64,000 nucleotides of DNA, from NCBI RefSeq assembly GCF_000010165.1, contig NC_012491.1, positions 5,093,001 through 5,157,000 on the forward strand. Direction: 5' to 3'. Position 1 is the first letter of the stretch; each line of letters starts with the position of its first letter. Both the position numbers and the translations under genes were made by a program. The notes under the pieces were generated by a model. That model had not been told where the DNA came from. It was given only the letters and a program-made list of their open reading frames with translations, and ran no database searches. Source of the DNA: Brevibacillus brevis NBRC 100599. GTDB lineage: Bacteria; Bacillota; Bacilli; Brevibacillales; Brevibacillaceae. Shown piece after piece: positions 6,434 to 12,305 of this stretch.

Positions 6434-6515
6434 AAAAAATACGTATCTGAACGAATCAGACACGTATTTACACGTTACAAAACAATTATCCGATAGAACC
6501 TTCTATCTCGAACTT
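6434..6515 (-). repeat. Duplicated sufB 3' end plus terminator (left copy)
   Basis: About 80 bp nearly identical to 12223-12305, in the same orientation, with roughly nine differences and one indel. On the minus strand it encodes the last nine SufB residues (KFEIEGSIG and stop, versus KFEMEGSIG in the intact gene) followed by the same long terminator hairpin containing CGTGTCTGA/TCAGACACG-type arms. The coding part differs only at synonymous or conservative positions, so it appears to come from a once-functional sufB allele. Together with the right copy it brackets the two-component/ABC module. Confidence 0.85.
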
Positions 6516-6526
6516 GCATGCTTCGA

Positions 6527-9124
6527 TCAAATGTTTTCGTTCTTCAACGAGTTAACGATACTGTATTCTTTATATTTTCTATTTGCATAAAAGATCGTCG
6601 TCCCCACAATAAAAAACACACCAAGCCCTGCAATGATAAGATCCGCCCAAGGCACCGTAAAAGCGAATTCAAAATTACGGCTAAAGCTTTTGTAGATGAA
6701 AAACATTACGCATAAACTAATCGGTAAACCGTAAATAAGCGACTTCATTCCATAAAAGAATCCTTCGAAGCGTAGCATTTTCTTCATGCCCTTTGGCGTC
6801 ATACCAATGGAAGCCAACATCGCAAATTCACGTTTTCTCAAGGCCATCCCTGTCGAAATCGTGTTGATAATATTTGCCATACAAATGAGTCCGATGAGAA
6901 CTACAAACCCATAAAGGAATACGGATGTGACTGTGGCGCGATTCATTGCATCCTTACGCTCCTCAATCAGATTGTTCGTATAGACATGTACATCTGGATA
7001 TTTGTTAATAATCGGGTTTATTTCATTTTCCAATGCCGCAGACTGCTCTGTTGTAAATTGAACTTCGCTGGTAACTTGCTCAGACAGCATAGCGTTACCT
7101 CGTTCTCGGAACTTGTCAAAGTCTCGTTCAGAAACAACAAATGTAACCGTAAAAGCATATTCCTGGTATCGTAGCATAAAAGGTGGATGTTTATCCGTGA
7201 TAGAAGCAATTCGGACTTTAGCTCCTTCATTCAAAGTGAGAGGTAGTTCTGATCCCTCTTGGACTGTTAGTTGAGAGATATCTGTAAAATTATGTTCTTC
7301 TTTCAAGGTGAACCGATTGACAAGTATTGCAGAAATCTCGTCACCTTCCAATTTCTTTGCATCAATCCCCGCGGATTGCAGGTACGCTGCAAAAGAGGCC
7401 TCATCAAGAGAAACAATGTCTGCAGACATGAAGTATTTCCCATCAGGATTAAGAGTATGGCGACTGGAGATGTCTGTGGTAACCTCGTTTTCGTTGAGGA
7501 TTAGATCAGCACCGATAAGTTGGGTCTTCACTTTTGTTGTTGCGTTCTTGACGGACATCAATTCATTTGTTAATGACCTTACTCTTTCCAGATCGGCTCC
7601 CCTTGCGTTTACTGACAAATCATATGGTAGCGGTGCTTGTGCCATATTATAGGACTTATCCATATACAACGAAAAAGAAGAAGCTGCTAGGTACAGGATT
7701 ACACTGATCGCAAGAGAAAAGACAGTTGAGCGATAGTGATGTTTATTCCTTTTCAGATTTTTCAATCCTAGTTCCGCTTCAAATCCAAACAACTTCCGGG
7801 TCATATTGGATGTACGAACATCTTTTCCTTTTATCTCGATATCCTTGGTCTGGCGGATCGCAGTTATCGGTGTAATTTTCGATGCCCTCACTGCTGGTAA
7901 CCATGCAGAAATGAGCAATGTCAAAATGGAAAACAAAACGACCGCAATCATACTGTACGGCTCTATCACCAATCGTATCGGTTCACTAACAAAAAGCATT
8001 TTTTGAATGAATGGACTGAGCAAATGGAGAGTAACCCCAATGCCAATGGACCCAAAAAACAACCCAGCTGGAATCGCTATGACCCCGATCACAGCAGCTT
8101 CAAAAAATACGGAAGCCCTTTTTTGTTGTTTGGTTGCCCCTACGCTAGATAACATTCCTAAAGTGCGACTACGCTCTGAAAGCGAGATCGCAAACGCGTT
8201 GTAGATGAGTGAGACAGATCCAATCAAAATGATAATTCCAACGGAAAGAACTGCTAGGTACATCGTGTTAAGAAAGTGGGAATCGTTCGAAATCCCGGAA
8301 TAAAGCAACAGGTCCCGATTGTACTTGATTTTTACTCCATTCGATTTAACTTGATCCTTTACTCCGCTTACCTTACTAGCAATCGCGTCACTCGTTTCGT
8401 AAATGTCATTCCCTAAACCTTTAAAATCCTTATATTCAACGCTTACCGTGTAGGGAGAACCCTCCTCTAAATCACCTTCGGAAAGACCGCTAAATGCACG
8501 GTATGCAGCCATTACTTCCTGCTCTTTAGCTGGTGCTTGAACAATCCCGGTAATCGTGTATGTTTTCGTCTTTGTAGGCGTAAAGACTTCCTTTGATTGG
8601 TAGACATCATTGTCGCCCAACGTCTCGCTCTGCCCATCTACATTCAAGCTACGATCACCAAAATTTAAAGTGACTACATCTCCAACCTTCAAGCTTACAC
8701 CTGCGGTTCGAAGATACTCCGATGAAAGTGCCAGTTCATTTTCATTCTGAGGCAACCGCCCATCAATTAGGCTCACCCCTACGACATCGTGATTACTGTG
8801 TCCCGTAATATACAAATAGGGCTTCACGCTGTTTGGAGAGTTAGAAAGTCGTGCAAATCCGAGCTTCTGGTCAATATCGTATCTTTCAATGGCTTCCGTA
8901 TTTGTAATAACCGCAACATCTTCTCCTGTAACATTGAGAAAAGCTGCCTGCCATTTACCAGAGTAGGTAATCGCGTTTCTTTGCATCATATCCATGAAAG
9001 AACTACTAATCGAAAATACTGCTGTAAGCATTGCGACTGAAATGACAACCCCAATGATTGTCACAAGGGTACGGCTCTTATTCTTCTTCATATAACGTAA
9101 GGTGAGCTGATTTACGATATTCAT
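6527..9124 (-). CDS. FtsX-type ABC transporter permease, 865 aa
   Basis: Large permease with an N-terminal anchor helix (about residues 18-40), a long extracytoplasmic region (about 45-280), three helices of a first FtsX domain (about 285-410), a second anchor near 465, a second extracytoplasmic region, and a final FtsX domain (about 735-855). This two-FtsX-domain layout fits exporters or sensors of antimicrobial peptides or lipoproteins. The start overlaps the ATPase stop by 4 bp. With the upstream response regulator and kinase it forms a sensing/resistance module resembling Bce-type systems, though the permease is longer than BceB. The substrate is unknown. The stop lies just before the duplicated sufB fragment. 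Confidence 0.85.
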   Translation of the reverse strand: MNIVNQLTLRYMKKNKSRTLVTIIGVVISVAMLTAVFSISSSFMDMMQRNAITYSGKWQAAFLNVTGEDVAVITNTEAIERYDIDQKLGFARLSNSPNSVKPYLYITGHSNHDVVGVSLIDGRLPQNENELALSSEYLRTAGVSLKVGDVVTLNFGDRSLNVDGQSETLGDNDVYQSKEVFTPTKTKTYTITGIVQAPAKEQEVMAAYRAFSGLSEGDLEEGSPYTVSVEYKDFKGLGNDIYETSDAIASKVSGVKDQVKSNGVKIKYNRDLLLYSGISNDSHFLNTMYLAVLSVGIIILIGSVSLIYNAFAISLSERSRTLGMLSSVGATKQQKRASVFFEAAVIGVIAIPAGLFFGSIGIGVTLHLLSPFIQKMLFVSEPIRLVIEPYSMIAVVLFSILTLLISAWLPAVRASKITPITAIRQTKDIEIKGKDVRTSNMTRKLFGFEAELGLKNLKRNKHHYRSTVFSLAISVILYLAASSFSLYMDKSYNMAQAPLPYDLSVNARGADLERVRSLTNELMSVKNATTKVKTQLIGADLILNENEVTTDISSRHTLNPDGKYFMSADIVSLDEASFAAYLQSAGIDAKKLEGDEISAILVNRFTLKEEHNFTDISQLTVQEGSELPLTLNEGAKVRIASITDKHPPFMLRYQEYAFTVTFVVSERDFDKFRERGNAMLSEQVTSEVQFTTEQSAALENEINPIINKYPDVHVYTNNLIEERKDAMNRATVTSVFLYGFVVLIGLICMANIINTISTGMALRKREFAMLASIGMTPKGMKKMLRFEGFFYGMKSLIYGLPISLCVMFFIYKSFSRNFEFAFTVPWADLIIAGLGVFFIVGTTIFYANRKYKEYSIVNSLKNENI

Positions 9125-9804
9125 CGCCTGATCACCTCATCTCTAGAAATCCTGCCATCCGAAATGCCAATGATACGGTCCGCTTGCAAGGCAATGTTTT
9201 CGTCATGTGTAATAACAATCAGAGTTTGATGCCGTTCTTTGTGTAATTTTTTCAAGAGCTTCACAATCTCAGCACTGTTTTTGCTGTCCAGATTCCCCGT
9301 AGGCTCGTCAGCCAATACAATGGCGGGACTACTAATCAAGGCACGGCCAATAGACGCACGCTGCTGCTGTCCCCCAGAAAGCTGGTTTGGCAGATGCTTT
9401 AATCGCTGTTGAAGGCCTAGAGTCTCTACGATACCGGAAAAGATATCTTGATTTACTTCTCTACCGTCCAACAGCAATGGCAAGGCAATATTTTCTTCCA
9501 CAGTAAGGACAGGGATCAGATTGTAGAATTGATAGATAAGCCCAATCTGTCTGCGTCTGAAGATGGCCAGTGCCGTTTCATCCATCGCGTACATATCAGT
9601 CTGGTCAACGATCACTTTACCGGATGTGGGCGTATCAACGCCCCCCAGAATATGCAGAAGGGTAGACTTACCTGAACCAGAAGGTCCAATGATCGCAACA
9701 AACTCCCCTTTTTGTACGGAAAATGAGATATCGTTCAGTGCAGTAACAGCTGTTTCGCCATCACCGTACGTTTTTGACAGGTTCTCTACTCGCAAAATCT
9801 CCAT
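9121..9804 (-). CDS. ABC transporter ATP-binding protein (MacB/BceA type)
   Basis: Nucleotide-binding subunit for the adjacent permease. Walker [11 protein letters not shown]-loop region ([18 protein letters not shown]), signature [15 protein letters not shown], Walker [13 protein letters not shown] and switch HD motif (VITHDENIA) are all present. The frame is open to 9852, but GGGAGG sits 6 nt before the ATG at 9804, with a tandem ATG at 9807. It overlaps the permease start by 4 bp, so the two are coupled. Confidence 0.93.
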
Positions 9805-9889
9805 CATGATCCTCCCAGATAAGTTATTACGTTTAGAATAGCTGCCAAACATGTCTCGTCGGTGACATTCATTCTTACAATTTTGTCAT

Positions 9890-11849: not shown

Positions 11850-11865
11850 GAGGAACCAGGCACTT

Positions 11866-12183
11866 ATGAAAAACAAGACAGCTTGTCTCGTCCTTTCTAT
11901 TAGTCAAAGCATCTATGCCATTTTCTTATTGGCTTGGGCCATTTCTGTTTTTTTTACCATTGTCCTTTTACCTGAAGATGAATATGATACGGGAGCGCCA
12001 GGGATGTTCTATACGATCCTATCGTATCCGCTTGTACTACTTACCTCAGCGTTAGGCAGCTGGTACTGCTATCACAAGTTAAAATTCAAAACGAGTTACG
12101 CGCTCAATGCCATTCCTTTACTTTGGGTCATTCCGATGGGGTTATTTATGATCTTATTATGGAAATTCGGTTTGTCCTCGTAA
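11866..12183 (+). CDS. Hypothetical three- to four-helix membrane protein
   Basis: A 105-residue protein with hydrophobic segments near residues 7-35, 47-67 and 78-101, an acidic loop (PEDEYDTGAP) and a basic turn (YHKLKFKTSY). AGGAGG lies 11 nt before the ATG. Convergent with sufB, whose terminator follows. Family unknown; similar in style to the small membrane proteins at 5.6-6.2 kb. Confidence 0.65.
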   Translation: MKNKTACLVLSISQSIYAIFLLAWAISVFFTIVLLPEDEYDTGAPGMFYTILSYPLVLLTSALGSWYCYHKLKFKTSYALNAIPLLWVIPMGLFMILLWKFGLSS

Positions 12184-12220
12184 AAACAGCCCTCTAGCGG
12201 ATTACATAAAGCAAGGGCAC

Positions 12221-12254
12221 AAAAAAATACGTGTCTGAACGAATCAGACACGTA
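12221..12254 (-). terminator. suf operon terminator
   Basis: Long perfect hairpin TACGTGTCTGA/TCAGACACGTA followed by a T-run on the minus strand, 20 nt after the sufB stop. The same hairpin, slightly diverged, recurs at 6434-6470. Confidence 0.85.
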
Positions 12255-12305
12255 TTTACACGTTATCGAAACGATTATCCGATAGAACCTTCCATCTCAA
12301 ACTTA
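12223..12305 (-). repeat. sufB 3' end plus terminator (right, intact copy)
   Basis: Direct-repeat partner of 6434-6515. It covers the last codons of the functional sufB and its terminator. The two copies enclose about 5.7 kb containing the two-component/ABC module and small membrane genes, consistent with integration or homologous recombination at the sufB 3' end. Confidence 0.85.

What the first reader, a model, noticed from the sequence alone, without database searches (positions are those of the whole stretch)
6434..12305. Two-component/ABC module bracketed by duplicated sufB 3' ends
About 80 bp covering the last SufB codons plus the suf terminator occurs twice as a direct repeat (6434-6515 and 12223-12305), enclosing about 5.7 kb. 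The left copy encodes KFEIEGSIG and stop; the intact gene encodes KFEMEGSIG. Differences are synonymous or conservative, so the left copy seems to derive from a functional sufB of a related strain, not from decay of a local duplication. This is the footprint expected if a segment integrated at the 3' end of sufB and restored it. No integrase is present inside, so homologous recombination of donor DNA, or an element that lost its integrase, are both possible. The cargo is a regulator, intramembrane-type kinase, ABC ATPase and long FtsX permease, plus small membrane genes.
Basis: partly seen in the sequence, partly recalled or inferred. Interest (0 to 1): 0.82.

Follow-up and report, generated by a model that had tools for sequence, protein, structure and literature searches.

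The report
Relocated operon beside sufB integration scar
A sensor-and-transporter gene group that related bacteria keep elsewhere in the chromosome sits here next to what looks like the scar of an old phage-type insertion at the end of the sufB gene, a site that prophages of this genus use repeatedly.

Summary
The repeat is real: 6434-6515 and 12222-12304, 93% identical, the only two copies in the genome. The sufB 3' end is a recurrent insertion site in this genus: a tyrosine integrase or its remnant abuts sufB in 13 of 26 genomes, and free phage Emery carries the same core beside its integrase. All 12 displaced sufB ends found, the window's included, begin within about five bases of one point. 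The left copy is best read as a fossil integration half-site.

The interval is not a clean inserted element. Its right end keeps the native terminator and a native neighbour gene; against G018 (B. porteri) the extra DNA is 6414-11676, 0.6 kb from sufB. The regulator-kinase-ABC-FtsX operon has close relatives in 7 of 25 other genomes, 6 of them at two other loci; one of those loci lacks it here. In G006 a chemoreceptor gene likewise sits in the sufB island and is missing from its usual locus.

Most likely: a relocated resident operon beside an old attachment scar, whose copied suf terminator probably now ends the operon. Mechanism and order of events are unresolved.

The parts
12275..13672 (-). 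sufB, intact; its 3' end is the integration target
   Evidence: TIGR01980 E 5.7e-227; ORF
12225..12257 (-). native suf terminator (right copy)
   Evidence: 14-pair hairpin with T tail; -21.8 kcal/mol, z -5.98
11866..12183 (+). mem, 105-aa protein without known family; follows the suf terminator (own or displaced) directly in G018, G023 and G022
11662..11709 (-). short segment at the edge of the extra DNA; also upstream of the operon on G018 contig C10, partly kept at G018's own sufB locus
   Evidence: 87.5% over 48 bp; 31/31 identical between the two places in G018
10884..11570 (-). response regulator (OmpR type)
   Evidence: PF00072, PF00486
9890..10900 (-). histidine kinase
   Evidence: PF00512, PF02518
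9121..9852 (-). ABC transporter ATPase (LolD/MacB/BceA-like)
   Evidence: PF00005; PDB chains
6527..9124 (-). FtsX-type permease, 865 aa
   Evidence: PF02687, two stretches; MacB_PCD just below cut-off
6486..6515 (-). displaced end of sufB (KFEIEGSIG-stop), read as fossil attachment core
6437..6469 (-). displaced suf terminator (left copy), about 58 bp behind the permease stop
   Evidence: 14-pair hairpin; -17.9 kcal/mol, z -5.00; 39/39 bases shared with G023
6414..11676 (.). extra DNA of the window relative to G018 (5263 bp)
   Evidence: boundaries read by hand
5814..6218 (+). small protein gene 'f', native left flank, also in G011, G018 and G005

Best explanation
The left repeat is a fossil half of an integrase attachment site: the original last nine codons, stop and terminator of sufB, pushed away when a tyrosine-integrase element (phage or satellite) inserted at the sufB 3' end. 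That element is gone from the window. The four-gene two-component/ABC operon is a resident accessory operon of this clade, found once per genome and at other loci in most relatives that have it. It came to lie in this variable region before the window's genome and G023 parted. The copied suf terminator stayed and probably ends transcription of the operon. Shown: the repeat, the shared start point, integrases at sufB in relatives, close relatives of the operon at other loci, the locus without it here. Inferred: that an element made the left copy, that the operon moved within the lineage rather than arriving from a relative, and the terminator's new role. How the DNA moved, and in what order, is unresolved.
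For: 12 displaced sufB ends, the window's included, begin within about five bases of one point. An integrase or remnant abuts sufB in 13 of 26 genomes (PF00589 above cut-off in 3 of 4 proteins scanned). The core stands beside the integrase of free phage Emery. Close relatives of the permease (88-93%) occur in 7 of 25 other genomes, in 6 of them at two other loci; the first of these loci lacks the operon in G000, G023, G018, G005, G012. G023 shares the arrangement and the left terminator base for base, while its sufB codons are replaced. A second resident-type gene sits in the sufB island of G006 and not at its usual locus there.
Against: No element remnant lies beside the left copy, and the right end lacks the element DNA seen in relatives. 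The native gene mem lies between the repeats, which a plain insertion does not explain. The left copy differs from phage-made ends in the two or three bases just before the core. In G023 the sufB codons are absent, so the core is seen at this place in one genome only. Import by recombination from a relative would give much of the same picture; local trees do not resolve.
Confidence: 0.58

Rival explanations
1. One reading: one element, operon included, integrated at the sufB 3' end, restored the gene, and later lost its integrase (a CIME-like island).
For: Left end at the core; no integrase inside; islands with broken or truncated integrase and non-phage cargo exist at the same site in G006 and G017.
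Against: The right end has the native terminator and native mem; close relatives of the operon lie at non-sufB loci without shared flanks; against G018 the extra DNA starts 0.6 kb away from sufB.
Confidence: 0.17
2. Import by homologous recombination of a relative's sufB flank (terminator-mem-operon) into a strain with a different flank (terminator-f), leaving both ends.
For: mem and f occur in different combinations: G011 and G005 have f without mem, G002, G006 and G022 have mem without f, G018 has both; local trees are star-like.
Against: It does not by itself explain why the left copy starts at the integrase core; no relative with terminator-mem-operon and no left terminator was found among 26 genomes.
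Confidence: 0.15
3. Old local duplication of the sufB end without any integrase.
For: The left copy is as divergent from its own sufB (78/85) as the ends of sister genomes are from each other; its coding part is missing in G023, as expected of a neutral copy.
Against: Its start coincides with the point shared by 11 other displaced ends; for random ends within sufB I estimate about 0.5% (7 of 1398 positions).
Confidence: 0.1

Closest known systems
Prophages at the 3' end of sufB (Sa1int prophages of S. aureus CC398, PMC11217367; two L. sakei prophages in a sufB-like gene, PMC9641780; S. pseudintermedius prophages between sufB and a protease gene, PMC8297860; passages read)
   Same: Same target gene; in relatives of the window, prophages with tyrosine integrase and repeats of the sufB end
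   Different: No phage gene or integrase in the window; only the displaced sufB end remains
CIME (cis-mobilizable element), definition read in passages of PMC7563491
   Same: Gene cluster between repeats at the 3' end of a housekeeping gene, without integrase, size within the 1.2-13 kb given there for classical CIMEs
   Different: The right end is native, no link to an ICE or IME, and the cargo is a resident operon with relatives at other loci
Bce/Psd-type two-component and ABC modules of Firmicutes (class recalled; PDB matches)
   Same: Regulator, kinase, LolD/BceA-like ATPase and FtsX-family permease in one operon
   Different: 865-aa permease with only weak similarity to YtrF (E 6e-8), MacB (4e-7) and PsdB (7e-5) chains; substrate unknown

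Membership tests
sufB-3'-end integrative element (prophage type) | displaced sufB end beginning at the integrase core | tested here: met
   start at the AAG of KFE
sufB-3'-end integrative element (prophage type) | tyrosine integrase beside sufB | tested here: not met
   tblastn with four integrases finds none in 12.3 kb downstream
sufB-3'-end integrative element (prophage type) | element DNA replacing the terminator beside sufB | tested here: not met
   native terminator follows sufB
CIME | att sites at both ends | tested here: inconclusive
   left end at core; right end is native sufB with terminator
CIME | no integrase or conjugation genes | tested here: met
   the only genes inside are mem and the four-gene operon
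CIME | derived from an ICE or IME; mobilized in cis | not testable with these tools
   no parent element found; needs experiment
Bce/Psd module | permease closely related to BceB or PsdB | tested here: not met
   PsdB only over residues 275-418, E 6.6e-5; no BceB chain listed at E 0.001
Bce/Psd module | kinase without large extracellular domain | not tested

The most novel reading that the evidence does not exclude
The sufB attachment site of Brevibacillus works as a relocation hub for resident genes: decaying integrase islands there take up single-copy host genes (two-component/ABC operon in the window's genome and G023, globin-type chemoreceptor in G006), so that operons move about the chromosome between brackets left by phages.
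Probability: 0.2. Interest if true: 0.62.

Novelty: new member of a known kind. Interest (0 to 1): 0.4.

Why it matters
It places the sufB 3' end of Brevibacillus among well-used prophage attachment sites, with a matching core in a free phage. It shows a resident operon beside such a scar, apparently using the displaced gene's terminator, and warns that two terminal repeats round a gene cluster need not mean that the cluster arrived as one element. If resident operons turn up at this site more often than elsewhere, phage attachment sites would be places where a bacterium's own genes get rearranged.

Tried and rejected
Rejected: G018 as a certain pristine empty site. Its sufB locus keeps a short segment that also stands upstream of its own operon on contig C10 (31 of 31 bases identical), so it may be a scar of loss. 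Rejected: the DNA that replaces the sufB codons in G023 as attachment-site DNA; best local score 29 against a shuffle 95% point of 30; a 31-bp 90% match of that piece to L094 was seen and not followed. Rejected: choosing a donor of the left copy by identity.

A first sufB tree was invalid because about half of the rows were wrongly oriented; the repeat was star-like and its G007 row unusable. The operon tree groups G000 with G023 at 100/100.

Control: window 22000-33748 is colinear at 93-96% in 3 of 3 relatives searched, apart from 364 bases that all three have and the window lacks near 27879. So the backbone is not generally scrambled, but this is one stretch in three genomes. Against a special role of sufB: another transporter block (5.7 kb, 87%) lies at different places in G000 and G006, neither being sufB.

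Limits: displaced ends were sought by an 83-base search of 26 whole genomes and by pattern in the DNA fetched. For 20 of the 25 other genomes that was 20 kb or less downstream of sufB (G012 and G024 with a stretch of a second contig added); more was fetched for G005, G009, G010, G019, G022. Distant or very divergent ends may be missed, and ends starting later than the AAG would escape the pattern. Integrases were sought with four queries, so other types may be missed. The literature library holds open-licence papers only.
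Full report
WHAT IS THERE. The repeat is real. Window 6434-6515 and 12222-12304 match at 93%, with a one-base offset. A whole-genome search with the left copy finds only these two places. The unit is the last nine codons and stop of sufB plus the suf terminator, which folds in both copies (-17.9 and -21.8 kcal/mol, z -5.0 and -6.0). Between the repeats lie one 105-aa protein gene (called mem here; no Pfam or NCBIfam match) and four genes: response regulator, histidine kinase, ABC ATPase and 865-aa FtsX-type permease. 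GC there is 0.40-0.44. The same four genes have GC 0.41-0.42 in all seven close relatives examined, so low GC belongs to these genes and not to this place.

THE sufB 3' END IS AN INTEGRATION SITE IN THIS GENUS. All 26 genomes held for the genus were searched. sufB ends in KFEMEGSIG in 26 of 26. The native terminator follows in 5 of 26 (G000, G002, G011, G018, G023). A tyrosine integrase lies next to the stop, complete or nearly so over its length, in 9 of 26 (G005, G006, G008, G009, G010, G012, G019, G022, G024; the open frame is shortened in G006 and G024), and as a remnant in 4 more (G003, G007, G014, G017). Of four such proteins scanned, three pass the cut-off of PF00589 and the G017 fragment falls just below it.

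DISPLACED ENDS. Twelve displaced sufB ends were found in 11 genomes: one each in G000, G003, G005, G006, G009, G010, G012, G017, G019 and G022, and two in G024. Those on the same contig lie 3.5 to 52 kb from sufB; in the drafts G012 and G024 they lie on another contig. Compared with the own sufB, similarity begins within about five bases of one point in the 12, although the G003 copy and one G024 copy are weak. The window's left copy begins exactly at the AAG of KFE. The pattern used would miss ends that start later.

WHAT THE RELATIVES CARRY. Nine of nine proteins scanned from the G022 and G010 elements are phage proteins: terminase, tail sheath, tape measure, baseplate and integrase in one; portal, head, tape measure and integrase in the other. 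G017 has a type I restriction system between a truncated integrase and the displaced end; G006 has a glutamate-synthase-like gene and a protoglobin-chemoreceptor gene between a broken integrase and the displaced end.

A FREE PHAGE. Phage Emery of B. laterosporus has an integrase 78% identical to that of G022. Within about 100 bp beyond it stands the core AAGTTCGAGATGGAAGG without mismatch. I looked at 11 other loci (10 of the 36 viral contigs and one more phage record): 7 have the core at that place with 0-1 mismatches, and 4 do not, of which 3 are cut shortly after the integrase. In at least 4 of the 7 (L171-L174) the bases before the core read as sufB, so those are integrated copies.

WHY THE WINDOW IS NOT A SIMPLE INSERTED ELEMENT. 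Where an integrase lies beside sufB, other DNA stands in place of the terminator. In the window both copies keep it. mem directly follows the suf terminator in G018 and G023 and the displaced terminator behind the prophage of G022; in G002 and G006 it lies some kilobases further on; the other genomes gave no match in the DNA examined. So mem belongs to the chromosomal flank. Against G018 the window is colinear through terminator and mem to 11677, then has 5263 extra bases (6414-11676), then is colinear again. The extra DNA holds the operon and, at its far end, the sufB fragment with terminator. G011 has sufB, terminator and left flank f without operon or mem. G023 has the operon at the same place (93% identical) and the same far terminator (39 of 39 bases), but other DNA instead of the sufB codons. 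So operon and left terminator predate the split of these two genomes. In G023 the codons were lost and the terminator kept.

THE OPERON LIES AT DIFFERENT LOCI. The permease has 88-93% relatives, one per genome, in 7 of the 25 other genomes; 7 more have a 39-40% relative. In G018 (B. porteri) and G012 (B. fortis) it lies at a second place with a shared downstream flank. In G023 it lies at sufB. At the first locus the operon is absent in G000, G023, G018, G005 and G012, with 0 to about 500 bp between the flanks. G005 has no close copy, but a 40% relative beside the gene that flanks the operon in G018. The unit shared between loci is about 5.05 kb and ends within about 10 bp of the permease stop; upstream, short pieces are shared in mosaic fashion. 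One such piece borders the extra DNA here, stands upstream of the operon on G018's contig C10, and remains without operon at G018's own sufB locus (31 of 31 bases identical within G018). G018 may therefore have lost the operon from sufB.

A SECOND CASE AT THE SITE. The chemoreceptor gene in the G006 island is 91-96% identical to a gene elsewhere in 5 of the 8 other genomes searched (G018, G005, G023, G011, G000). At the corresponding locus G006 has both flanks without it; G022, G002 and G012 show no full match either. This parallels the window but does not tell relocation from loss plus gain.

CONTROLS AND COUNTER-RESULTS. A 12-kb stretch of the window is colinear in 3 of 3 relatives. A second transporter block lies at different places in G000 and G006, neither being sufB, so changes of place are not confined to this site. 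Local trees do not resolve.

BEST EXPLANATION. The left copy is most simply the displaced original sufB end left by an integrase element (about 0.75 for this part, my estimate). The present interval is a rearranged region in which a resident operon lies beside that scar (0.58 for the whole reading). The copied terminator begins about 58 bp behind the permease stop and likely ends that transcript; one search shows a terminator-like site, no transcript was seen. Recombination between strains with different sufB flanks is a strong companion explanation.

CARGO. Two-component systems with such transporters often sense and counter envelope-active compounds (recalled); the function here is inference. 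Solved relatives of the permease are weak.

LITERATURE. Passages read: PMC11217367, PMC9641780, PMC8297860, PMC10117131 (island between dnaX and sufB in E. cecorum), PMC8503688 (Tn1549 near sufB in one E. faecium isolate), PMC7563491 (CIMEs). Searches for Brevibacillus with sufB and integrative and with prophage and attP listed 3 and 6 papers; by title and start of abstract none is about this site, and I read none of them.

IDENTITY. The genome has 6,296,436 bases, which I recall as the size of B. brevis NBRC 100599; no call confirms the name.

Noticed in passing
L065 14500-17900 (G006, sufB island): Broken integrase, glutamate-synthase-like gene and protoglobin-chemoreceptor gene between sufB and its displaced end; the chemoreceptor is missing from its usual locus in G006.
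   Followed up: partly
L076 1658-7952 (G017, sufB island): Type I restriction-modification system between a truncated integrase and the displaced sufB end.
   Followed up: no
window near 27879: 364 bases present in G006, G011 and G018 are missing from the window.
   Followed up: no
window 33791-34000: Stretch with several copies in relatives, some at contig ends, suggesting a repeated element.
   Followed up: no
window 4654-5190: Protein with a suppressor-of-fused domain (PF05076, E 4.2e-10), conserved to the left of the variable sufB region in 22 of the 26 genomes in the DNA examined, counting the second-contig stretch of G012.
   Followed up: no
L170 4166-9829 and L169 4068-9757: Another transporter block (5.7 kb, 87%) at about 3.00 Mb in G000 and 1.49 Mb in G006; no match of the flanks within the 12 kb fetched.
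   Followed up: partly
L095 (G024 contig C45): Two displaced sufB ends 5.1 kb apart, each followed by integrase remnants, as if elements had inserted one after another.
   Followed up: no
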